Below are positions 14,228-52,782 of a stretch of 52,782 bases of DNA, one piece after another. Both the position numbers and the translations under genes were made by a program. Location: contig CAIVGN010000222.1 of NCBI GenBank assembly GCA_903905455.1, positions 1-52,782 on the forward strand. Reading direction: 5' to 3'. The stretch comes from an uncultured Archangium sp. Its GTDB lineage: Bacteria; Myxococcota; Myxococcia; Myxococcales; Myxococcaceae. The number at the start of each line of letters is the position of its first letter. The first letter of the stretch is position 1. Under the pieces are notes generated by a model. The model had not been told where the DNA came from, did not search any database, and saw only the letters and a program-made list of their open reading frames with translations.

Positions 14228-14457
14228 GGGGTTCGGGGTGCATGCGCCCGGGGCGAGCTCGAGGGAGCCCCTCGGCACGACACCGTCGATGGCCACTGGC
14301 TGTCGCCTCACACTGACGGACTCCGTGGTGGTGCCCACCCCCACCGAGTCCGTCAGAACCGAGTCATCGAGGCGCCGCGGGTTCGAGGGGCACGCCCGCT
14401 TCCGCGCACGGCCTGAAAACAGGCCCACCCCCACCCTCCAGGCCGCTGTTCAGAACA
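14228..14457. repeat. Direct repeat copy B (~228 bp) flanking the DUF559 gene
   Basis: Second copy of the element at 12981-13210. The hairpin arms lie at 14313-14323 and 14346-14356. As in copy A, its right edge coincides with the stop codon of a minus-strand gene, here the MBOAT gene (stop at 14450-14452). Both copies thus begin at a stop codon when read on the minus strand (TGAACAGCGGCC in copy B; TGAACAGCGGCC in copy A). The spacing between copies equals the DUF559 gene plus one repeat unit, 1247 bp. Confidence 0.9.
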
Positions 14458-15820
14458 CGTAATAAATGAAGTCGGCCCGCGCGTTCCCATACGCCAGCAG
14501 CAGCCACACCATCAGCGCCGCGAGCACCAGCACCACCCACGGCCGCAGCGACCCGGGACGATCCGCGCGCACCAACCCGAACAGCGGCTTCTGCAGCGCG
14601 AGAAACCCGAAGGTCATCACCGCGGTCTGGGTGGGCGTGTTGATGTCCCAGGGCGCGGTGAAGAGCCGGCTGATCAACACCCCCAGGGCACCCATGGACG
14701 GCGCCCGGAACGGGATCCACAAGAACACCACCACGTGGAAGGTGATCAACACCCCCAGCCACTTCGGCCACCGCGCACGCGACTTCTCGGTGACCAACTC
14801 GAGGTCCATCCACACGCCGTGGAGGAAGCCCCAGAGGATGAAGTTCCACCCCGGCCCGTGCCACAGCCCACCCAGCGCCATGGTGAGCAGCCGGTTGAAG
14901 GCGGCGCGCGTCTTCGAGACCCCGCGGTTGCCGCCCAGCGAGATGTACAGGTAGTCGCGCAGCCACACCGAGAGCGTGATGTGCCAGCGGCGCCAGAACT
15001 CGCGCAGCGAGTCCGAGCCGTACGGGTTCTCGAAGTTCACCGGCAGCACGAGCCCGAAACACAGCCCCAGGCCCACGGCCATCGTCGAGTAGCCCCAGAA
15101 GTCGGCGAGCAACTGCGCCGCGTAGCCGTAGACGACGAGCCACGCGTTGTTGATGCCCAGCGACGCGGGGTCGGACCACCCGAAGTCCACGTAGTCACCG
15201 ATGACGTCGGCCACGCCCACCTTGAGGAACAGGCCGGTCAACACCAGCCACGCCCCGCGGGAGAGCTTCTCCGCGTCGAACGGCAGGCGCCGGTGCAGCT
15301 GCGGCAGGAAGTCCTTCCCGCGCACGATGGGACCGGCGACCAACTGCGCGAAGAACGACTTGAAGACCGCGAACACCAGCACGCTGCGCTCGGCGGGCAG
15401 CTCCTTGCGGTACACGTCGACGAGGTAGGCGACCACCTGGAAGGTGAAGAACGAGATGCCCAGCGGGGCCCAGGCGTCGGGCCTGGGCACGTGCAGCTCG
15501 AGGCCGAGCTGCGCGCCCCCGAGGATCAGCTGATCAATCAGGAAGCGCGCGTACTTGAAGTACAGCAGCAACGAGAGGTTGAGGGTGACCCCGAGCGCGA
15601 GGAGTCCCTTGACGCGGTGCCGCTCGAGCAGCCGCCCCAGCGTGTAGTTCACGGTGATGCTCGCCAGCAGCAGGAACACCGAGGGCCAGTGCCGCCACCC
15701 GTAGAACACCAGCGACGCGCCGAAGAGCAACGCCAGCCGCGCGCGGTGCCACGGGGTGAGCCAGTAGAGCGCGATGAGCCCCGACACGCTGATCAGGAAG
15801 GTGGCGCTATGGAAGAGCAC
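14450..15820 (-). CDS. MBOAT-family membrane O-acyltransferase (AlgI/DltB-like)
   Basis: 456 residues from a GTG at 15820. It is a polytopic membrane protein with about ten hydrophobic segments. It shows MBOAT signatures: LGISFFTFQVVAYLVDVYR, FVFP-like FFAQLVAGPIVRGKDFLPQL, EFWRRWHITLSVWLRDYLYISLGGNR and the catalytic-His segment LGGLWHGPGWNFILWG. Relatives O-acetylate exopolysaccharides or cell-wall polymers by moving acyl groups across the membrane. Its start lies 14 bases inside the 3' end of the SGNH-like gene, so the two are probably translated together and work as an export/transfer acetylation pair. The polymer target is not identifiable; no polysaccharide synthesis genes are in the window. 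The stop codon abuts repeat copy B. Confidence 0.93.
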   Translation of the reverse strand: MLFHSATFLISVSGLIALYWLTPWHRARLALLFGASLVFYGWRHWPSVFLLLASITVNYTLGRLLERHRVKGLLALGVTLNLSLLLYFKYARFLIDQLILGGAQLGLELHVPRPDAWAPLGISFFTFQVVAYLVDVYRKELPAERSVLVFAVFKSFFAQLVAGPIVRGKDFLPQLHRRLPFDAEKLSRGAWLVLTGLFLKVGVADVIGDYVDFGWSDPASLGINNAWLVVYGYAAQLLADFWGYSTMAVGLGLCFGLVLPVNFENPYGSDSLREFWRRWHITLSVWLRDYLYISLGGNRGVSKTRAAFNRLLTMALGGLWHGPGWNFILWGFLHGVWMDLELVTEKSRARWPKWLGVLITFHVVVFLWIPFRAPSMGALGVLISRLFTAPWDINTPTQTAVMTFGFLALQKPLFGLVRADRPGSLRPWVVLVLAALMVWLLLAYGNARADFIYYVF

Positions 15821-16736
15821 GCAGCGCCTCCCCCAGCACCTTCGAGTACTGCGCGCGGCCCGGCGACGAGAGGTGTTGCCCGTCGACGAACCAGCGCTCA
15901 TCGACTTCCGCGCAGGTGAAGTCGAGGAACGGCGCGCGCACCCGGCGGGCGACCTCGGCGCGCTGGGCCTTCAGCTCGGGCGTGCACTCGGTCTCGCGCC
16001 ACCCGGCCCCGAGCGGAGGCGCCACCAGCGTCACCACGGCCCCCTGCGCCCGCAGCGCCGTCACCGCGCGCCCGAACCCCTCGGCCACGCGCTCGCCCTC
16101 GGCGTCGAGCGTCGCCGGCGGGGTCTCGCGCACCGGCGCCGGGGCCCACGCGGCCGCGTCGTGCACGCCCTCCGGTGCGACCGGGGGTCGAAAGGTCTCG
16201 GTGAGCTGCCGCGAGCGGAACCACTCCGAGCCGTCGAAGCGCGAGGCGAAGACGATGGCGAACACGCGCGGCAGGTTCTCGAGCGCGAAGGCGCGGCGCA
16301 CGGCGAGCAGCGCGGAGTGCGCATGGAGCCAGGCCCCGAGCGGGTCTCCATCAAAGGCGCCGGGCGCGGCGGCGTCGTCGGCGTCCATGGGGGTCGAGGC
16401 GCTCATGGGGCCCGAGAGTTCCACCAGCACCCGCCGCTGGGGCCCGAGGTTCGCGGCGAAGAACTCCAGGGTGGGCAGGGACGACGAGGGCGTGGCGGCG
16501 GAGAAGCCCGACCCCAGCCCGAGGAGCGCGGGGTTGAGGCCGTCGTTGCTGCGCGAGCTGCCCAGGGCCACGAAGTCGACCGGACTCCTGGCGTGGAGCA
16601 GCGCGAGCTTGAAGCGCACCCGGTGGGCGACGGCGGCGAGGCCCTCGGGCTGCACGCGGCACAGCACCTCGAGCGCGGCGAGCAGCCCCAGCACCACGGC
16701 CATCAACTGCATCAGTCGGAGCGCACCGCGCGACAT
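15807..16736 (-). CDS. SGNH-hydrolase-like membrane-anchored protein (polysaccharide acetylation partner)
   Basis: About 309 residues from the ATG at 16736; a GTG at 16754 is an alternative start. A hydrophobic N-terminal segment (LMQLMAVVLGLLAALEVL) should anchor it in the membrane or act as a signal. The SGNH-like block I is DFVALGSSRSNDGLNP (Ser in GSS), and the last block is WFVDGQHLSSPGRAQYS with the Asp-x-x-His pair written DGQH. The protein resembles the AlgX/AlgJ-like or DHHW-type partners encoded next to MBOAT acyltransferases. The 14-base overlap with the MBOAT gene supports a joint function in acylating an extracellular polymer. It is divergent from the Ser/Thr kinase gene; 79 bases separate the two starts. 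Confidence 0.8.
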   Translation of the reverse strand: MSRGALRLMQLMAVVLGLLAALEVLCRVQPEGLAAVAHRVRFKLALLHARSPVDFVALGSSRSNDGLNPALLGLGSGFSAATPSSSLPTLEFFAANLGPQRRVLVELSGPMSASTPMDADDAAAPGAFDGDPLGAWLHAHSALLAVRRAFALENLPRVFAIVFASRFDGSEWFRSRQLTETFRPPVAPEGVHDAAAWAPAPVRETPPATLDAEGERVAEGFGRAVTALRAQGAVVTLVAPPLGAGWRETECTPELKAQRAEVARRVRAPFLDFTCAEVDERWFVDGQHLSSPGRAQYSKVLGEALRALP

Positions 16737-44570: not shown

Positions 44571-46232
44571 TCAGGGTGACGGCGGGGGAATGGAGACGCC
44601 CCCCAACGAATCAAAGAAGTCGCACTCGCCGTTCCGCCAGCCGGTGAGCGTGGAGACGGTCGCGTCGAGTTGCTGCATGGGCTCCACCGACGACACGCGC
44701 GGCCAGGTCAGCGCCCCGCCCCCGTTCGGGTCACCGGTGGCGGCGAAGCGCGTCCAGTACCCGAGCACCGCGGCCTCCACGGCGAGGTCTTCCGCGGGCG
44801 GGTTGGGCGTCAACGCGGCGAGGCGCTGAAACACATACGCCAGCTCGGCCCCATGAAACGCGCCGCGCACAGCCACCGGCGCCCGCGAGAAGAAGTACCG
44901 GTACGCAGGCACGCCCGGCCACCCGAGCACCGCGGCCCGCGAGGCCAGGCGCGCCTGGCACCCGAAGAACGCATCCGTCGTCACCTGCACCAGCGCCCGG
45001 CGCGGAGAGCCGTACGTCGCCACCGGGTAGTGCAACAGCACCTGGTCCGTCAGCGCCGGCCCGACCAACTGGGTGACGGCGGCGCGGTACTCGGGCTCGG
45101 TGGTGATGAGGGGCATGCTCGAGTTCGTCTCTTCGGCGTTGTGGCCGATGATCAGCGGCACCGGCGCGGAGGTGCCCGCCCGCAGCGCGTCCAGCGGGTT
45201 GACCTTCAACACCACGCCATCGACCGCCGGGTTCCAGCTCACCTCGGGGCGGCGGCTGCCGACGTTCACCGGCACCGGGAACGCGCGGATCAACTGCTCC
45301 GGGGTCAACCCGCGCAGGCACGCCGGCACATCCACCGCGCCCTCGCAGCCGGTCTCGTGCAGCCACGTCGTCCCCTCGACGCGCTTGGCGGCGATGGGCA
45401 GCGCGACACACGAACCGCTCTCCACGAGCGCGCGGTGAAAGAGCCCCGCCGAGCCGGGCGCCGCGAGGTGCATGCAGGTGTCGACGGCGCCAGCGCTCTC
45501 GCCGAAGAGCAGCACCCGCGAAGGGTCACCGCCGAAGCGCGCCACGTTGCGCTGCACCCACTGCAAGGCGGCCTGCTGGTCGAGCAGGCCGTAGTTGCCC
45601 GACACGCCCGCGTCGCTCTGCGCGTCGAGGGCGGGCAGCGCGAGGAAGCCCAGCGCCCCGACCCGGTATTCCATGCTCACCACCACCACCCCGCCGCGAC
45701 TGGCCAGGGTGCTGCCGTCGTACAACCGCACCGCGTTGGCGCCGGTGGTCTCGGCGGTGGAGCCGGCGGTGTTGCCGCCTCCGTGGATGAAGACCATCAC
45801 CGGCACCCCGCCATCGGTGGCCGGGGGCGTGAAGACGTTGAGCGTCAGGCAGTCCTCCTGCCCCTCCACCGGCGCGCCGGCGTCGAAGCTCTGCCCCTGC
45901 ACCTGCACCAACTGGGGGCACTTCGGGGCCCACTGCGTGGCGTCGCGCACCGTGGGCCAGCAGGAGCGGTCGCGCTGGGGCGGTTGCCAGCGCAGCGCGG
46001 CCACCGGGGCCTTCACGTAGGGCACGCCGAGGAAGCTGCGCGCGCCGTCGCCGTGCACCACGCCGCGCACCGCGCCCTGCTCGGTGAGGACCACCTCGGC
46101 GCTGGCGGTGAAGCCGGCGGTACAGTCGAAGCCCGCGTCGGCCCCGGGCCCCAGCGCGCCCCCGTCGTCGAGCCCCGGCGGCGACCCACAGCCCAGCACA
46201 CAGACACACCCCAGCAGCAATTCGAGTCGCAT
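44571..46232 (-). CDS. Type-B carboxylesterase lipoprotein
   Basis: 553 residues from the ATG at 46232. The signal MRLELLLGCVCVLGC ends in a lipobox Cys. The alpha/beta-hydrolase esterase pattern of family VII is clear: SFLGVPYVKAPVAALRWQPP, EDCLTLNVFTPP, oxyanion HGGGN (150-154), nucleophile elbow GESAGA (Ser246) and the final His in FHGAELAYVF. The acid residue is expected near HNAEETNSSM. Carboxylesterases of this kind hydrolyse short-chain esters and carbamates; here it would be lipid-anchored to the envelope. It is divergent from ptsI with 91 bases between the starts. The SDR-like gene follows on the same strand. Confidence 0.93.
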   Translation of the reverse strand: MRLELLLGCVCVLGCGSPPGLDDGGALGPGADAGFDCTAGFTASAEVVLTEQGAVRGVVHGDGARSFLGVPYVKAPVAALRWQPPQRDRSCWPTVRDATQWAPKCPQLVQVQGQSFDAGAPVEGQEDCLTLNVFTPPATDGGVPVMVFIHGGGNTAGSTAETTGANAVRLYDGSTLASRGGVVVVSMEYRVGALGFLALPALDAQSDAGVSGNYGLLDQQAALQWVQRNVARFGGDPSRVLLFGESAGAVDTCMHLAAPGSAGLFHRALVESGSCVALPIAAKRVEGTTWLHETGCEGAVDVPACLRGLTPEQLIRAFPVPVNVGSRRPEVSWNPAVDGVVLKVNPLDALRAGTSAPVPLIIGHNAEETNSSMPLITTEPEYRAAVTQLVGPALTDQVLLHYPVATYGSPRRALVQVTTDAFFGCQARLASRAAVLGWPGVPAYRYFFSRAPVAVRGAFHGAELAYVFQRLAALTPNPPAEDLAVEAAVLGYWTRFAATGDPNGGGALTWPRVSSVEPMQQLDATVSTLTGWRNGECDFFDSLGGVSIPPPSP

Positions 46233-46323
46233 GGCCCGGTGGAACCCCCGGCGCCTGTGTTGGTTGCGGGAGATCATTCAGCAACAGCGCGGGGCGAGGC
46301 GAAGTAGGCTCCTGTGCGTCCCC

Positions 46324-48123
46324 ATGAGTGCCACCGTCTCTTTCCAGGGTATCGGCGCCAGCCCCGGTGTCGCCATTGGCCATGCCTACGTGCTCGATGC
46401 GCGACGGGTGCGCACGCCGAAGGTGAAGTTGACCCGCGCGGAGATCGAAGGCGAGGTGCTGCGCTTCAAGACCTCCATCGAGCTCTCCGACCGGCAGCTG
46501 GAGGAGCTCAAGACCAAGCTCAGCGCCGAGGGCCAGGCCGAGCACGGGATGATCCTCGAAGCGCACCGCATGATGCTCCACGACCCCATGTTCCTGGTGG
46601 AGGTCACGCGGCTGATCAAGGAAGAGTTCATCAACGCCGAGTGGGCGGTGCGGCGCGTGGGCAAGCGGCTGCGCCACCAGTTCGACAACCTCGAGGACGA
46701 GTACTTCCGCGAGCGGAAGAGCGACATCGAGTTCGTGGCCGACCGGCTGGTGCGCAACCTCATGGGCGAGGTGGTGGACCAGGAGATCGAAGTGCCGCCG
46801 CACGCCATCATCTGCGCGCACGACATCTCGCCGGCCGACGCGGCGATGCTGGTGCGCTCGGGCAGCGTGGGCGCGTTCGTCACCGACCTCGGCGGGCACA
46901 CCAGCCACACGGCCATCGTGGCCCGCGCCCGCGAGGTGCCCGCGGTGGTGGGCCTGGGCAAGGCGTGCGAGTCGATCCGCGCGGGGGACATGGTGGCCGT
47001 CGACGGCCGCCGGGGCCTGGTGCTGGTCAACCCCACCGAGGAGCAGCTGGCGCTGTTCCGCGAGACGATGCGCCGGCAGATGCAGAGCGAGCAGCTGGCG
47101 CTCAAGACCGCCGAGCTCCCCGCGGTCACCAGCGACGGGGTGCGCATCCGCCTCAACGGGAACATGGAGTTCCCCGAGGAGATCCCCTCGCTGCTGGCCC
47201 ACGGCGCCGAGGGCATCGGCCTGTACCGCACCGAGTTCCTCTTCCTGAACCGCGCGGCCCCGCCGACGGAAGAAGAGCACTTCGAGTCGTACAAGCAGGT
47301 GCTGCAGGCCATGGGCGATCGCCCGGTGACCATTCGCACCCTCGACCTGGGCGGCGACAAGGTGCCCGGCAAGAAGCCCGACAAGGAGATCAACCCGGCC
47401 ATGGGCCTGCGGGCCATCCGCTACTGCCTGGCGCACCGCGAGCTGTTCCGCGTGCAGCTGCGCGCCCTGCTGCGCGCGTCGGCCTTCGGCAACCTGAGGG
47501 TGATGTTCCCGCTGGTGTCCTCCATCTCCGAGCTGCGCGAGGCGCGCAGTGAGCTCGAGGCCTGCCGCAGCGAGCTCTCGCGCCAGGGCATCACCATGGG
47601 CAAGCGCTTCCCCATTGGCATCATGGTGGAGACGCCGTCGGCCGCGTGGATCGCCGATCGCCTCGCCCAGGAAGCCGACTTCTTCAGCATCGGGACCAAC
47701 GACCTCATCCAGTACTCGTTGGCCATCGACCGGCAGAACCGCGACGTGGCGTACCTGTACCGGCCGCTGCACCTCGCCATCCTCCGCAGCCTGGAGGCCA
47801 TCATCAAGGCGGCGAAGGCGGCCAACATCCCCGTGGCGATGTGCGGCGAGATGGCCGGCGACGCGGCGTTGACCATCGTGCTGCTGGCCCTGGGCCTCGA
47901 GGAGTTCTCGATGACCTCCGGCCAGATTCCCATGGTGAAGAACGTCATTCGCCAGATGAGCCGCGCCGACGCCGAGGTGCTGCTGGAGAAGGCCATGGCC
48001 TTCTCGTCGGCCGAGGAGATCGAGCGCTTCATCAAGGGCGAGGTCGATCGCCGCTTCAACTCCGGCGAGGTCATGGGGGCCACGGTGCCCTCGACCACGC
48101 CGGCCACGACGACCAAGGGCTGA
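46324..48123 (+). CDS. ptsI: Phosphoenolpyruvate-protein phosphotransferase (PTS enzyme I)
   Basis: 599 residues, near the usual 575. The N-terminus (FQGIGASPGVAIGHAYVL) and the phospho-histidine motif GGHTSHTAIVAR (active His195, followed by the swivelling domain) are intact. The PEP-binding TIM barrel has GLYRTEFLFLN, TLDLGGDK, FSIGTNDLIQYSLAIDR and AMCGEMAGD (active Cys). It should transfer phosphate from PEP to an HPr-type protein. No HPr or enzyme II gene is nearby, so in this host it may serve a regulatory PTS. Its TGA touches the TCA of the convergent tocopherol-cyclase-like gene without a gap (TGATCA), so no room for a terminator exists between the two. Confidence 0.96.
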   Translation: MSATVSFQGIGASPGVAIGHAYVLDARRVRTPKVKLTRAEIEGEVLRFKTSIELSDRQLEELKTKLSAEGQAEHGMILEAHRMMLHDPMFLVEVTRLIKEEFINAEWAVRRVGKRLRHQFDNLEDEYFRERKSDIEFVADRLVRNLMGEVVDQEIEVPPHAIICAHDISPADAAMLVRSGSVGAFVTDLGGHTSHTAIVARAREVPAVVGLGKACESIRAGDMVAVDGRRGLVLVNPTEEQLALFRETMRRQMQSEQLALKTAELPAVTSDGVRIRLNGNMEFPEEIPSLLAHGAEGIGLYRTEFLFLNRAAPPTEEEHFESYKQVLQAMGDRPVTIRTLDLGGDKVPGKKPDKEINPAMGLRAIRYCLAHRELFRVQLRALLRASAFGNLRVMFPLVSSISELREARSELEACRSELSRQGITMGKRFPIGIMVETPSAAWIADRLAQEADFFSIGTNDLIQYSLAIDRQNRDVAYLYRPLHLAILRSLEAIIKAAKAANIPVAMCGEMAGDAALTIVLLALGLEEFSMTSGQIPMVKNVIRQMSRADAEVLLEKAMAFSSAEEIERFIKGEVDRRFNSGEVMGATVPSTTPATTTKG

Positions 48124-49158
48124 TCAGTAGGCCAGCAGCGCCTCGAGGTCTCCGTACACCTCGAGGCCGCCGCAGGCGCCTTCGTCCTCGAACACCGCCT
48201 CGCCCGAGAGCGTGGTGAGCCGCACCTGCACCTTCGCGTCGATGGACTCGACCACCCGGCGGTGCATCTGGGTGCGCACCGGGGCGTGCAGCAGGCCGCC
48301 GGCCACGCGCTCGGTGCTCAATTCGAGGCGGTGGGTGCGGTTGCGCAGCGTCCAGTGCACGAAGCGGTCGTCGATGGCGAGGTGCTCGGTGCGCGAGCCG
48401 GCGTACGTCGCGAAGCGGTGCAGCACGCCGTCCAGCCACAGGCCCACGATGAAGCCGCGGAACGAGCTCGCCTTGCGCCCGGTGACGGCCCGGGTCACCG
48501 AGTCGAGGGCCGAGGCCACGCGCCCGGGGGGCATGGTGGGCACGATGGCGATGGAGGCCGAGAGGCACACCTCGGGCCGCGAGAAGTGGTTGGTCTGCAT
48601 CCACACGTAGGCGCTGGGGAAGGCGGCGCCCCAGTCCTTCTCGATGTAGCCGAGGCCGCCGTCGAACGAGACGGGCGCGCCGTCGATGGTGAGCGTGCCG
48701 GTGAGCGCGTGGGAGAAGCTCACCAGCCCGTGGCTGCACTCCATGAAGGGCACGAGGCCGAAGGGCCCCATGATGCCCGGCGAGAGCGTCGTCACCGGCC
48801 AACCGGTGAGCGGGCGGCCGCCGTTGAAGGTGAGCTGCCCGGTCAGCCCCTCGAGAGACAGGGACAGGCCGGCGGCGCTGAAGTGGTTGTCGCCGACCTG
48901 CACCTCGAAGCGGTCTGCTTCGGCGCGAAACGCGGCGCGCGGGAACGAGTGAAACCAGCTGCGGTTGCTCACCCCGTCGAGCACCTGCACGAAGGCCTCG
49001 GCCTCGCCGTGGGGCCCGAGGAACAGGCCGGGGATGAAGGCCCAGCGGTGCTGGCGGTCCGCCGACACGCACTTGAGGTACCAGCCCTCGAAGTAGCGGC
49101 GGGTGCGCCCGAGGCCGTGGAAGCCCTCGGGGTGAAACGTCGACGTCAGGTAGTTCAG
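48124..49158 (-). CDS. Tocopherol-cyclase-like protein (start region probably frameshifted or non-ATG)
   Basis: 344 residues if counted from a CTG at 49158. Homology signs: FHPEGFHGLGRTRRYFEGWYLK (residues about 9-30; read in two pieces, FHPEGFHG and YFEGWYLK), AFIPGLFLGP, GYIEKDWGAAFPSAYVWMQTNHF and later GDLEALLAY; these match the tocopherol cyclase/lipocalin-like family. Starting at the GTG at 49068 would lose EGWYLK, so that start is unlikely. The expected ATG overlaps the stop of the deiminase gene (49161-49163) but reads ATG-ATC-TGA, and the needed frame is one base off. So either a frameshift or error lies in codon 2-3 or a CTG start is used. Bacterial members are of unknown activity; the fold binds hydrophobic molecules. 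It is probably cytoplasmic or envelope-associated. Confidence 0.78.
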   Translation of the reverse strand: MNYLTSTFHPEGFHGLGRTRRYFEGWYLKCVSADRQHRWAFIPGLFLGPHGEAEAFVQVLDGVSNRSWFHSFPRAAFRAEADRFEVQVGDNHFSAAGLSLSLEGLTGQLTFNGGRPLTGWPVTTLSPGIMGPFGLVPFMECSHGLVSFSHALTGTLTIDGAPVSFDGGLGYIEKDWGAAFPSAYVWMQTNHFSRPEVCLSASIAIVPTMPPGRVASALDSVTRAVTGRKASSFRGFIVGLWLDGVLHRFATYAGSRTEHLAIDDRFVHWTLRNRTHRLELSTERVAGGLLHAPVRTQMHRRVVESIDAKVQVRLTTLSGEAVFEDEGACGGLEVYGDLEALLAY

Positions 49159-49159
49159 A

Positions 49160-50992
49160 TCATCGACCCGAGGTCCACCACGTGGGCTTCGTCGCGTCGC
49201 GGCGCGAGTTGGTCGCGCAGTGCAGCTCGCCGGAGAGCCGGTGGTAGAGGTTCCATTCTTCGACCCAGGCCACCTTGATGCCGATGGGCTGCAGGGCCAT
49301 CTCCAGCTGGGTCTTGAAGATGTCCTTGCCGTCGATGATGGGCCCGTGCGGTTCGGGCGCGCCGAAGGTGTCGTGGGCGAAGACCAGGCCGTTGACGGTG
49401 CCCGGCTGGTACGCGAGCGAGGTGCCCATCACCGGCTCGTGGAGGTAGGGCACGCGGATGATCTCCGCGTCGGTGAGCCCGGTGGCGGTCTTGATGATCT
49501 GCACCTGGGTGTCGACGTGGGCCGCGGTGGCAGCGCTCTCGGCCATCACGTCGACGTTGGCCAGCACGTCGGAGATGCTCACGTCGGCGGCGCGCTCGAC
49601 GCCCTGGTCATCGACCCACTTCTGGCCGACGAACATCTTCACCGCGCCGTTGCCGGCGGTGACCTGGGCCTCGAGCATCTGCTTGGCGAGCGCCGGGTCG
49701 TTGACCAGCATCACCCAGCCGCGCGGGCTGGGGGCCTTCACGAAGCTGACGGTCTCGTCGATGTGGCCCACGAGGAGCCACTCGGTGTCTACGTACACCG
49801 ACGGCTGCATGCCCTGCGAGACGAGCAGCTTCTCGAGCGCGGGGTCGGTGCCGAAGCGCGTGGTGTTGCCGCGGATCTGCCGGCCCAACGGGTAATCCAC
49901 GCCGCCCAGCGAGAAGGGCGGAATGGTCTCGAGGTTGCCGTAGGAGTTGAGCGAGTCGCTGTCGGCGTTGTGATGCGCCAGGTCGAAGGCCACCACGCCC
50001 GCCGCGTCACGCCCGCGGAACTTGGCGAACACCACCTTGCCCGCGTCGCGCAGGGCGTCGTTCGGGTAGTCGGGGTAGTAGACGTTCGACGAACGGATGA
50101 AGACGTCGATGACGTGGTTGCCCGTCCTGGTGGGCATCGACATGTAGGCCACCTCGAAGAAGTCCTGCGTCCACTGGTCGGCGAAGGGCGTGAAACCGTC
50201 GAAGGTGGCGTCGCCGTCGACGTCGGTCAGGGGCGTGGCGGTGACGGTGAGCGCGTCCTGCAGCGAGGTGCGCATGATGCGCGAGTCGGGGTCGGTGGCG
50301 AAGGCGGTGACGAAGACCTGCTTCTCGTCGGCGAGGTGGTGCTGGGTGATGACCGGCGCCACGCGCAGCTTCACCTCGTCGCTCTTGCCCGCGATGCTCA
50401 GGGTGACCGTCACGAAGCCGTCCCACCTGGCGGTGTCGCGCACGATGTCGGTGGCCTCGATGGCCAAGGTCGCGCCGGCCCGCACTTCTTCGGTGGTGAG
50501 GCGGTCGTGCTGCCAGTCGAACCAGGCGTAGGCGCCGTTGCGCTTGATGAAGAGGTTCACGTGGCCCGCGGCCCTGGGGTCGACCAGCAGGCTGCCGGTG
50601 GTGGCGTCGGGGGCCGAGACCCACGCCTGCACGCCCAGCGGCGCGAGGTCGAGGAGGTCGAGCTCGCCGTTGATCACCAGGTCGGCGCCGTCGTTGCACT
50701 TGGAGAGCTCGTCGTCGACCAGCAGCGCGCCGGCGCCGTCGGTGCTCATGCAGCGCAGCGAGTCGTCGTCGATGTTGGCCAGCATGATGGCGCCGTGGGT
50801 GGCGTCCCAGGCGGTCTTGAGGGTGGTCTCGGTGGTGTCGTCGAAGTCGATGGTGCCGTTGCGGTTCGCGTCGGCCACCAGCACCACCAGCGGGAGCACC
50901 GTCACCTTGCCCAGGGCGGCGCCGAAATCGGTTGCGGGCTTCTCACAGCCCACGGCCAGCACCGCGCCCATCACCCACGCCAGGCGCTTCAT
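49160..50992 (-). CDS. Protein-arginine deiminase (PAD) family lipoprotein
   Basis: 610 residues. Signal peptide MKRLAWVMGAVLAVGC with a lipobox Cys16. Residues about 35-210 match the PAD middle domain, starting with an EF-hand-like loop DANRNGTIDFDD (41-52) and followed by GAIMLANIDDD, as in animal PADs. Residues about 212-610 match PAD_C. All catalytic residues of PAD4 have counterparts: Asp277 (DQWTQDFFEVAYM), His410 and Asp412 (VGHIDETVSFV) and nucleophile Cys592 (GELHCATNSRR). SLNSYGNLETIPP and YPLGRQI also match the enzyme. The N-terminal immunoglobulin-like PAD_N is absent. PADs convert protein arginine to citrulline in a calcium-dependent way; export to the envelope points to an extracellular target. 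It overlaps the HEAT-like gene upstream (ATGA) and abuts the tocopherol-cyclase-like gene. Activity is inferred only. Confidence 0.93.
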   Translation of the reverse strand: MKRLAWVMGAVLAVGCEKPATDFGAALGKVTVLPLVVLVADANRNGTIDFDDTTETTLKTAWDATHGAIMLANIDDDSLRCMSTDGAGALLVDDELSKCNDGADLVINGELDLLDLAPLGVQAWVSAPDATTGSLLVDPRAAGHVNLFIKRNGAYAWFDWQHDRLTTEEVRAGATLAIEATDIVRDTARWDGFVTVTLSIAGKSDEVKLRVAPVITQHHLADEKQVFVTAFATDPDSRIMRTSLQDALTVTATPLTDVDGDATFDGFTPFADQWTQDFFEVAYMSMPTRTGNHVIDVFIRSSNVYYPDYPNDALRDAGKVVFAKFRGRDAAGVVAFDLAHHNADSDSLNSYGNLETIPPFSLGGVDYPLGRQIRGNTTRFGTDPALEKLLVSQGMQPSVYVDTEWLLVGHIDETVSFVKAPSPRGWVMLVNDPALAKQMLEAQVTAGNGAVKMFVGQKWVDDQGVERAADVSISDVLANVDVMAESAATAAHVDTQVQIIKTATGLTDAEIIRVPYLHEPVMGTSLAYQPGTVNGLVFAHDTFGAPEPHGPIIDGKDIFKTQLEMALQPIGIKVAWVEEWNLYHRLSGELHCATNSRRDATKPTWWTSGR

Positions 50993-51945
50993 CGCGCACC
51001 TCGCGCCGGGTTGCGTTCGAAGCGATGTTGCAGGGCCTCGAGCCTCGCCTGCACCTCGCCGTTGGCCGCGGCGCGGGCCGTGGCGATGAGGGCCGGGGTC
51101 TCGGGGGCGTCGATGCCCATCAGCGCGTCGGAGGCCGAGTCACGCAGGGCGCTGTCGGTGGTGTCCACGAAGACGGCGAGGGCCCCGCGGGCGGCCGTGC
51201 GGCGCAGCGCTTCGAGCTCCGAGGCGGGAGCGGCGTTCGGAATGGCCAGCGCCCAGGACGAGGCGAGGCGGCCCAGCGAGGTGACCACCAGCGCGCCGCG
51301 GGCGGCCGGGGGCTGCGAGGCGGCGACGTCGGCCAGCGCGGTCACCGCGCCGAGGCGGCGACACGTGCCGAGGCCCGCGAGCACCGCGTCTTGCGACGCG
51401 CCCGGGGTGGTGGCGAGGCGCGCGAGGAAGGCCACGTCTTCATCGAGGCCCAGCTTGCCCAGGGCCTCGGTGGCCGCGCGCACGTCGTAGAAGGCCGTGC
51501 CCTGCTGCACCAGCGCCCGGTAGCTGGGGGCGGCGAGCGGGTCCTTCAGGTCACCCGAGGCTTCGATCAACCCGGCGCGCAGCGCGGTCAGCGCGCTGGC
51601 CTTCACCGGCATGGAGAAGCGCTCGGGGTGGAGCACCGGCTCGAGGAACGCGAGGGCGGCGCCCGAGTGCCCCTGGGAGGCCCGGGCCACGTCGCGGAGC
51701 ACGGTGGTCATGGGGAAGAAGCGGCCGCGGCGCTTCGCGTCCAGCGCATCGGCCCGACCGACGACGGAGCGCACCCCGCTGAAGGCCGCCGGAAACTCGG
51801 TGCGCACCCGGGCCAGTTCCTTGTCGAACTGCTGCGAGGTGAGGAGGTCGAGCTTCGGCGGCGCGGAGACGGCGAGCACCTGGGCGAAGACGAGCGACGA
51901 GGACAGCACCAACGAGAGGGGCATCAACCGCAGGGGCAACAGCAT
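50989..51945 (-). CDS. Secreted HEAT-repeat-like protein
   Basis: 318 residues from the ATG at 51945, which is followed by a signal peptide (LLPLRLMPLSLVLSSSLVFA). The mature part is a run of short paired helices rich in Ala and Leu (ATEALGKLGLDEDVAFLARLATTPGASQDAVLAGLGTCRRLGAVTALADVAAS, spelled over about 165-225), the style of HEAT or PBS-lyase repeats. Such proteins act as scaffolds. Its stop overlaps the deiminase ATG by four bases, so the two are cotranscribed, and it may present or regulate deiminase substrates in the envelope. No catalytic motif is seen. The AAA ATPase gene ends 94 bases upstream. Confidence 0.78.
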   Translation of the reverse strand: MLLPLRLMPLSLVLSSSLVFAQVLAVSAPPKLDLLTSQQFDKELARVRTEFPAAFSGVRSVVGRADALDAKRRGRFFPMTTVLRDVARASQGHSGAALAFLEPVLHPERFSMPVKASALTALRAGLIEASGDLKDPLAAPSYRALVQQGTAFYDVRAATEALGKLGLDEDVAFLARLATTPGASQDAVLAGLGTCRRLGAVTALADVAASQPPAARGALVVTSLGRLASSWALAIPNAAPASELEALRRTAARGALAVFVDTTDSALRDSASDALMGIDAPETPALIATARAAANGEVQARLEALQHRFERNPARGAR

Positions 51946-52039
51946 TTCGGGTCGATAGCAGGGGCCCGCCGCGCAGACAAACGCGGTGCTCATGGGGCAG
52001 TGCGTCAGCGGGGCAGAAGAGGACTCGCAACGCCCCCGT

Positions 52040-52782
52040 TCAGCGGAAGCCCAGCGCCGACGCCGGGCGGCCCCGGGCGGCGACCTCGAGACCGAGCTCC
52101 GCGAGCAGGGCCTCGTCGTCCACCACCCCGCCGTGCAGCGACACCCGCCGGGCCACGGCCGCGAAGTCGCCGGGGACCAGCGAGGCGAGGCGCCCGAGCT
52201 GCAGCGCGAGCGACGCCGCGCGGGCTTCGTCCCACGGCGCCGAGCCCAGGGCCTCGAAGTGGGCGCGGAACACGGTGACGGCCTGGGCGGGCTCGAGGGG
52301 CCGGAACTCCACCTTGAAGGCGAAGCGGCGCAGGGCCGCGGGGTCGAGCTCGCGCCACAGGTTGGTGGTGCACACGATGACGCCCCGGTAGGCCTCGAGC
52401 TGCTGGAGGAACTCGTTGACCTGGGTGGCCTCCCACGAGTGCTGGGCGCCGCGACGGTCGCGCAACAGCGAGTCGACCTCGTCGAACACCAGCACCGCGT
52501 CGTCGAGCGTGGCCTCGCGAAACGCGGCGGCGAGCTGCTGCTCGGTCTGCCCCACCCACTTGCTCAAGATGTCCGAGGTGCGCTTGACGAGGGTGCGCCG
52601 CCCCATGCGCCAGGCGAGGTGCTGGGCGAGCTCGGTCTTGCCGGTGCCCGGCGGGCCGTAGAAGCACAGGGTCAGCGGCACGCCGCGCGCGGGGCTCCAG
52701 GCCGTCGCCGCCGACACGAGGTGCGCGAGGTCGACGTTGCAGTTGAGCGCCTCGAGGCGAAAGCGCGTGGGGTCGAAGCCCA
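52040..52782 (-). CDS. AAA-family ATPase, C-terminal part, runs off the window end
   Basis: About 247 residues are visible; the frame is open beyond base 52782. Walker A is FYGPPGTGKTELAQHLA, Walker B is AVLVFDEVDSLLRDR, then VCTTNLWRELDPAALRRF with sensor 1 Asn and an arginine-finger-like pair. The region ends in a small helical lid domain (LVPGDFAAVARRVSLHGG). The start with GFDPTRFRLEALNCNVDLAHLVSAA (residues near the edge) suggests a preceding N-domain outside the window. It resembles CbxX/SpoVK-like or ATPase proteins that remodel protein complexes; the exact subgroup is unclear. It lies upstream of the HEAT-like and deiminase genes on the same strand and could belong to their operon. 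Confidence 0.9.
   Translation of the reverse strand, partial: GFDPTRFRLEALNCNVDLAHLVSAATAWSPARGVPLTLCFYGPPGTGKTELAQHLAWRMGRRTLVKRTSDILSKWVGQTEQQLAAAFREATLDDAVLVFDEVDSLLRDRRGAQHSWEATQVNEFLQQLEAYRGVIVCTTNLWRELDPAALRRFAFKVEFRPLEPAQAVTVFRAHFEALGSAPWDEARAASLALQLGRLASLVPGDFAAVARRVSLHGGVVDDEALLAELGLEVAARGRPASALGFR

What the first reader, a model, noticed from the sequence alone, without database searches (positions are those of the whole stretch)
48124..52782. Deiminase operon with HEAT-like protein, cyclase-like protein and possibly an AAA ATPase
The HEAT-like gene, PAD gene and cyclase-like gene are overlapped or adjacent on one strand, with an AAA ATPase 94 bases upstream. If conserved, this would be a citrullination-related system with a scaffold and a lipocalin-like partner, which I do not know to be described.
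Basis: inference. Interest (0 to 1): 0.58.

Follow-up and report, generated by a model that had tools for sequence, protein, structure and literature searches.

The report
Secreted deiminase with dedicated HEAT-repeat partner
In soil-dwelling myxobacteria, a secreted enzyme of the family that turns protein arginine into citrulline is almost always encoded together with one particular exported HEAT-repeat protein, which suggests a dedicated control or folding partner; the two other genes beside it here are chance neighbours.

Summary
The four genes exist, all on the minus strand, but only two belong together. The deiminase is a real PAD (PF03068, E 2e-84) with the catalytic D/H/D/C in 81 of 81 sequences and a lipoprotein-type signal. 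The "HEAT-like" protein is an exported all-helical HEAT solenoid (AlphaFold pLDDT 92). A gene of its family lies beside the PAD in 22 of 23 full-length PAD loci among 99 relatives and in 77 of 80 named loci (two of the three misses are contig ends). 73 of those 77 pairs share a 4-nt start/stop overlap. In 195 Myxococcota genomes all 41 strong HEAT matches touch a PAD. HEAT comes first only in the window's four-member clade. The cyclase and the AAA ATPase are not conserved neighbours: relatives carry them on other contigs or without any PAD. Seven paper searches on PADs listed no PAD-HEAT pair. Most likely the HEAT protein is a dedicated exported partner that folds, holds or gates the deiminase (inferred); one attempt to model the complex was inconclusive.

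The parts
49160..50992 (-). PAD: protein-arginine deiminase, 610 aa, lipoprotein-type signal (MKRLAWVMGAVLAVGC), PAD_C at residues 204-606
   Evidence: PF03068 1.9e-84; PAD4 chains align over the middle and catalytic domains, E 8e-84; catalytic residues 81/81
50989..51945 (-). Exported HEAT-repeat solenoid protein (318 aa from ATG 51945; the tool's ORF begins at ATG 51993), signal peptide MLLPLRLMPLSLVLSSSLVFAQ
   Evidence: AlphaFold model pLDDT 92.4, pTM 0.87, all helical; alphaRep HEAT proteins best match; PAD-adjacent in relatives
50989..50992 (-). 4-nt ATGA overlap: stop of HEAT, start of PAD
   Evidence: sequence; the same kind of overlap in 73 of 77 related pairs
50945..50992 (-). PAD signal peptide ending in a lipobox-like VGC (residues 1-16)
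   Evidence: sequence; crude lipobox pattern in 60 of 80 relatives
50162..50164 (-). catalytic Asp277 (PAD4 D350; PAD4 numbering recalled)
   Evidence: 81/81; aligned
49757..49765 (-). catalytic His410 and Asp412 (PAD4 H471, D473; numbering recalled)
   Evidence: 81/81 each
49217..49219 (-). nucleophile Cys592 (PAD4 C645; numbering recalled)
   Evidence: 81/81
48124..49158 (-). Tocopherol-cyclase-like protein (PF14249), start codon unresolved; NOT part of the conserved module
   Evidence: PF14249 51.4 bits vs cut-off 26.6; unlinked in relatives; upstream frame
52040..52782 (-). 3' part of a two-domain AAA ATPase cut by the contig end; NOT part of the conserved module
   Evidence: PF00004 6.3e-26; continuation on contig C26; unlinked in relatives

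Best explanation
A two-gene cassette encodes an exported, calcium-type protein-arginine deiminase (a lipoprotein, so probably outer-membrane or vesicle-bound) and a dedicated exported HEAT solenoid. The HEAT protein is made in step with the deiminase (4-nt start/stop overlap) and most likely binds it outside the cytoplasm. There it would act as a folding, stabilising or gating subunit, so that arginine deimination happens only where and when the pair is assembled. Shown here: gene adjacency, coupling, export signals (by pattern), an intact active site, and dependence of the HEAT gene on the PAD gene. Inferred: physical binding, the direction of control, location, and substrates.
For: HEAT adjacent in 22 of 23 full-length PAD loci of 99 relatives and in 77 of 80 named loci. 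All 41 strong HEAT matches (E<1e-40) in 195 genomes are PAD-adjacent on the same strand. 4-nt overlap in 73 of 77 pairs, kept in both gene orders (HEAT first in the window, L029, L030, L031; one clade in the tree). Whole modules occur in two or more copies in several genomes. The HEAT family has signal-peptide-like N-termini in 67 of 71. PAD and HEAT distance matrices correlate, r 0.79, 0 of 500 permutations as high; HEAT diverges faster (median identity 34% vs 48%). Opposite charge: median net -33 for PAD, +5 for the arginine-rich HEAT. Only one strong family member in the window's own genome. No third conserved neighbour found by clustering.
Against: No binding shown: a single-chain model of L062's in-frame read-through pair gave pTM 0.66 and no usable interface evidence. 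PAD can live without a detected HEAT neighbour: L078, L174, L177, L184-L187, L190, and three actinobacterial plasmid PADs. In the phylum of the Holophagae MAG only 2 of 6 PAD genomes show one within the flanks held. Correlated distances are expected for any two genes inherited together. A long-lived operon alone does not prove contact.
Confidence: 0.55

Rival explanations
1. The HEAT protein is an adaptor or scaffold that brings arginine-bearing substrates to the lipoprotein PAD rather than controlling its fold or activity.
For: HEAT solenoids are protein-binding surfaces; closest solved relatives are alphaRep binders. Faster divergence than PAD fits varied substrates.
Against: A general substrate adaptor need not be lost whenever PAD is absent; no strong HEAT match was found away from a PAD. 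Several positions are 80-99% conserved, which suggests one constant partner.
Confidence: 0.2
2. The HEAT protein is itself the main substrate: an arginine-rich exported protein whose conserved arginines are deiminated.
For: 9.2% Arg against 3.5% Lys, net positive; Arg positions conserved in the family (R89 75/78, R212 71/76, R213 67/76, R264 72/75).
Against: Arginine excess is common in high-GC genomes and was not compared with a background set; one dedicated substrate per enzyme would be unusual.
Confidence: 0.12
3. Toxin and immunity pair: the PAD lipoprotein is a weapon and the HEAT protein neutralises it, in the manner of SitA/SitI.
For: A lipoprotein next to a small downstream gene with a coupled start, present in myxobacteria; SitBAI passages seen in PMC5562445.
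Against: No polymorphic C-terminal toxin domain: the catalytic domain is conserved along its length. No orphan HEAT genes among strong matches, though orphan immunity genes are usual in such systems (recalled). PAD exists without HEAT in L078, L174 and L190.
Confidence: 0.1

Closest known systems
Vertebrate PAD1-4 (e.g. PAD4, PDB 1wd8/2dex)
   Same: Catalytic domain, D/H/D/C residues, middle-domain acidic residues; PAD4 aligns over residues 114-664 with E 8e-84, and PAD4 structures are the best fold match.
   Different: No PAD_N domain; exported lipoprotein; PAD4 E351 and D369 positions are aromatic/Leu and invariant Arg; a gene-coupled HEAT partner.
Fungal/actinobacterial-type PADs as described by Cummings et al. 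(PMC8826395)
   Same: No PAD_N, divergent PAD_M, His-His motif before the catalytic domain (H218 73/81, H219 80/81).
   Different: The position aligned with the calcium-switch Asp is D or N in 80 of 81 here, Gly in their actinobacterial/fungal set; three actinobacterial plasmid PADs lack the HEAT neighbour.
Porphyromonas-type PPAD and agmatine/arginine deiminases
   Same: Guanidine chemistry (recalled).
   Different: Different Pfam family (recalled); no such match to the window PAD; PMC8826395 section 5 treats them as phyletically distinct.
Lipase and lipase-specific foldase (Lif/LipH)
   Same: Works like: an exported enzyme with a dedicated periplasmic partner (abstracts seen; gene linkage recalled).
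   Different: The HEAT protein is not of the Lif family by Pfam and carries a signal-peptide-like start rather than a shown membrane anchor.
SitA/SitI toxins of Myxococcus
   Same: Lipoprotein plus downstream partner gene (passages).
   Different: Conserved enzyme, no variable toxin domain, no orphan partner genes among strong matches.

Membership tests
Protein-arginine deiminase (PF03068) | PAD catalytic domain above curated cut-off | tested here: met
   284.4 bits vs 25
Protein-arginine deiminase (PF03068) | catalytic Asp, His, Asp, Cys | tested here: met
   D277, H410, D412, C592 in 81/81
Protein-arginine deiminase (PF03068) | PAD_M middle domain | tested here: inconclusive
   PF08527 14.7 bits, below cut-off 24.8; profile aligns to PAD4 from residue 114 on
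Three-domain animal/cyanobacterial PADI | PAD_N domain | tested here: not met
   alignment to PAD4 begins at PAD4 residue 114; no PAD_N match
Three-domain animal/cyanobacterial PADI | second catalytic-domain calcium site (PAD4 E351, D369; recalled ligands) | tested here: not met
   F/Y/L/W and invariant R at those columns
Protein-arginine deiminase (PF03068) | calcium-dependent conversion of peptidyl-arginine to citrulline | not testable with these tools
   needs enzyme assay
HEAT-repeat proteins (HEAT_2, PF13646) | score above curated cut-off | tested here: not met
   window protein 16.8 vs 27.7 bits; PAD-adjacent relatives pass: 36.9, 31.5, 29.2 bits, 3 of the 6 scanned
HEAT-repeat proteins (HEAT_2, PF13646) | alpha-solenoid of antiparallel helix pairs | tested here: met
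   pLDDT 92.4, all helical; VIA Z 15.3, rmsd 5.3 over 216 residues to an alphaRep
Tocopherol cyclase (PF14249) | score above cut-off | tested here: met
   51.4 vs 26.6 bits
SitA-type lipoprotein toxin system | polymorphic C-terminal toxin domain | tested here: not met
   C-terminal catalytic domain conserved across 81
SitA-type lipoprotein toxin system | neutralisation by the partner protein | not testable with these tools
   needs competition assay
Lipase-specific foldase (Lif) | Lif protein family match | tested here: not met
   only HEAT_2 reported for the window HEAT protein

The most novel reading that the evidence does not exclude
Myxobacteria and some bacteria of the Holophagae phylum run a secreted two-protein citrullination device in which a HEAT solenoid is a built-in regulator of the deiminase (activator, inhibitor or conformational gate), perhaps taking over a control step for which animal PADs use a calcium site whose ligands are missing here. 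It would be a gene-encoded protein regulator of a PAD.
Probability: 0.3. Interest if true: 0.72.

Novelty: new variant of a known kind. Interest (0 to 1): 0.52.

Why it matters
Citrullination is studied mainly in animals and in one oral pathogen; what PADs do in free-living bacteria is largely open. A conserved, translationally coupled partner gives a direct handle: it says the bacterial enzyme works outside the cytoplasm, together with a specific protein, and it makes the question of what controls a bacterial PAD testable with two genes in a laboratory Myxococcus. If the HEAT protein inhibits or activates PADs it would also be a natural starting point for protein-based control of these enzymes.

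Tried and rejected
Four-gene operon: rejected. Toxin-immunity: kept as a rival only. Promoter and terminator scan of 47900-52782: 0 of each found, not informative in such DNA. Rfam and tRNA scans of the window: nothing.

Complex modelling: a mixed alignment of 79 PAD and 70 HEAT rows under L062's read-through chain misaligned. Smaller mixes were tested and one (10 PAD, 35 HEAT rows; A5) was folded: pLDDT 85.7, pTM 0.66. No error matrix is returned and the value is what two well-folded but loosely placed domains would give, so I draw no interface from it. Foldseek on the HEAT model gave no match at E<=0.001; its VIA matches are generic solenoids.

Errors of mine: a first HEAT profile of 756 columns was wrong (merged hits) and was remade. 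The PAD lipobox count (60 of 80) and HEAT signal count (67 of 71) use crude patterns of my own, not a trained predictor. The start-overlap count picks the start codon nearest the 4-nt overlap, which favours that answer.
Full report
What is there. The window is a whole contig (G000:C222) of an 8.6-Mb genome; its close named relatives are myxobacteria. On the minus strand run a cut-off AAA ATPase, the HEAT protein, the PAD and a tocopherol-cyclase-like gene. HEAT and PAD share the four bases ATGA at 50989-50992. The cyclase frame really begins within a base or so of the PAD stop, because its homologues start with the same HPEGFHG...FEGWY segment that lies upstream of the listed GTG; its start codon is unresolved. 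The AAA gene continues on contig C26, which shares 140 identical bases with the window's end.

The enzyme. PF03068 matches at 1.9e-84. A profile of 23 relatives matches solved human PAD4 with E 8e-84 from PAD4 residue 114 to 664, so the first animal domain is missing. The four catalytic residues are identical in 81 of 81 aligned sequences (80 named loci and the window), as are middle-domain acidic residues D75, D76, D77, D101, D112, D115. Calcium-site-1 positions hold: Q276 80/81, E280 79/81, E355 81/81. Site-2 positions do not: the columns of PAD4 E351 and D369 carry F/Y/L/W and an invariant Arg (ligand roles and PAD4 numbering recalled). The Asp called the calcium switch in PMC8826395 is D or N in 80 of 81. 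The read-through model's best PDB matches are human PAD4, with PAD1 at rank 8. Active chemistry and calcium need are inferred.

The partner. The HEAT protein models with pLDDT 92.4 and pTM 0.87 as a solenoid of helix pairs. Best solved matches by sequence profile and by fold are artificial alphaRep HEAT proteins, which says only that it is a HEAT-type binding scaffold. Its family has signal-peptide-like starts in 67 of 71 pairs where the start lies at the overlap.

The link. Among 99 relatives, 22 genomes have a PAD match. Of 23 full-length loci 22 have the HEAT gene beside them; the miss is G032. Three fragment or decayed PAD matches (G017, G049, G057:C588) were not counted. All 22 strong HEAT matches (E<1e-70) lie beside a PAD, and the next match is 1.1e-8. 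Of 80 named loci, the best 80 of 275 relatives and so biased to close ones, 77 have the pair; L089 and L095 end at a contig end, and L078 truly lacks it. In 195 Myxococcota genomes, 53 have a PAD. 41 of 41 strong HEAT matches (E<1e-40) sit beside one. Of the 55 PAD places compared (11 weak or fragmentary rows left out), 44 had a HEAT match by that search.

Remote members. I fetched 20 phylum-level loci, some from genomes already paired above (L189, L191 among them). Ten of the 20 have a HEAT gene by the remade profile. L173 and L175 have a downstream protein that passes Pfam's HEAT_2 cut-off. L183 has a HEAT-like downstream protein by eye only (no Pfam match). Seven have none detected (L174, L177, L184, L185, L186, L187, L190). 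That raises the 55 places to 51 with a HEAT-type neighbour, one of them by eye. In a tree of 104 PADs (91 with, 11 without, 2 unknown), presence needs 6 changes against 10.6 in shuffles; long branches make parts of it unsure. In the phylum of L097 (a Holophagae MAG by title), 6 of 297 genomes have a PAD. L097 and L229 have a HEAT neighbour; L228, L230, L231 and L232 showed none within the stretch held, and L233 is cut off at the contig end. Three actinobacterial plasmid PADs have none.

Coupling and order. 73 of 77 pairs have a start codon overlapping the stop by 4 nt; exceptions are L036, L043, L062 and L079. HEAT comes first only in the window, L029, L030 and L031, which form one clade (SH-aLRT 100). 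So the order was turned once while the tight junction was kept or remade. Modules are duplicated as pairs, e.g. two in one contig of bin.172 (L052, L075) and two in SSF41 (L040, L048). Distances of PAD and HEAT correlate at r 0.79. No other neighbour recurs: the next cluster, in 19 loci on both strands, begins like a protein kinase by eye, and such kinases are common in myxobacteria (recalled).

The other two genes. A cyclase homologue occurs in 6 of 60 genomes including the window's own; in G030, G009 and G006 it lies on a different contig from the PAD, and G004 and G018 have no PAD match. Strong AAA homologues occur in G077, G060, G065, G003, G066, G073 and G076; in G060 and G065 they lie on other contigs than the PAD, and the rest have none. 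L029-L031, the closest PAD loci, show only PAD and HEAT of the genes tested.

How it probably works. A gene that is not strongly matched without PAD, beside PADs that can be found without it, points to a protein that acts on or with PAD. Both carry export signals by pattern, PAD is strongly acidic (median net -33) and HEAT basic and arginine-rich (+5). I commit to a dedicated extracytoplasmic partner that folds, holds or gates the enzyme, similar in logic to lipase and its foldase (abstracts seen; passages of PMC4305245 do not describe gene order). Binding is not shown; the single-chain model was inconclusive.

What is in print. For PMC8826395 I read the abstract, sections 5-7 and a word search: no hit for myxo, HEAT, operon or neighbour. 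The PAD searches listed nothing on a PAD-HEAT pair; I saw their listings only, and the library holds open-licence papers only. PMC5562445 was seen as passages.

Verdict. A two-gene PAD-HEAT cassette of Myxococcota is well supported; its mechanism is open.

Noticed in passing
window 52643-52782 and G000:C26 end (L234): The window's contig end overlaps contig C26 by 140 identical bases inside the AAA gene, so the two contigs are very likely neighbours; the joined gene would be a two-AAA-domain ATPase of roughly 700-770 aa.
   Followed up: partly
window 49068-49158: The cyclase frame continues upstream to 1 nt after the PAD stop without any ATG, GTG or TTG; either a CTG start, or a small sequence error near an ATG that overlaps the PAD stop.
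   Followed up: partly
L015/L190 (G032), L078, L174: PADs inside the HEAT-bearing clade that lack the HEAT neighbour; natural tests of whether PAD needs it.
   Followed up: partly
L184, L185, L186, L188: Very divergent PADs with long open frames (763-932 aa) in myxobacterial genomes; L188 has a weak HEAT match downstream, the others none.
   Followed up: no
window 14450-15901: Strong AT skew at 14-16 kb coincides with a long hydrophobic ORF that looks like a membrane O-acyltransferase (by eye, no family search).
   Followed up: no
window 46084-48123 (+): Convergent gene downstream of the cyclase is a PEP-protein phosphotransferase (TIGR01417, 559 bits).
   Followed up: no
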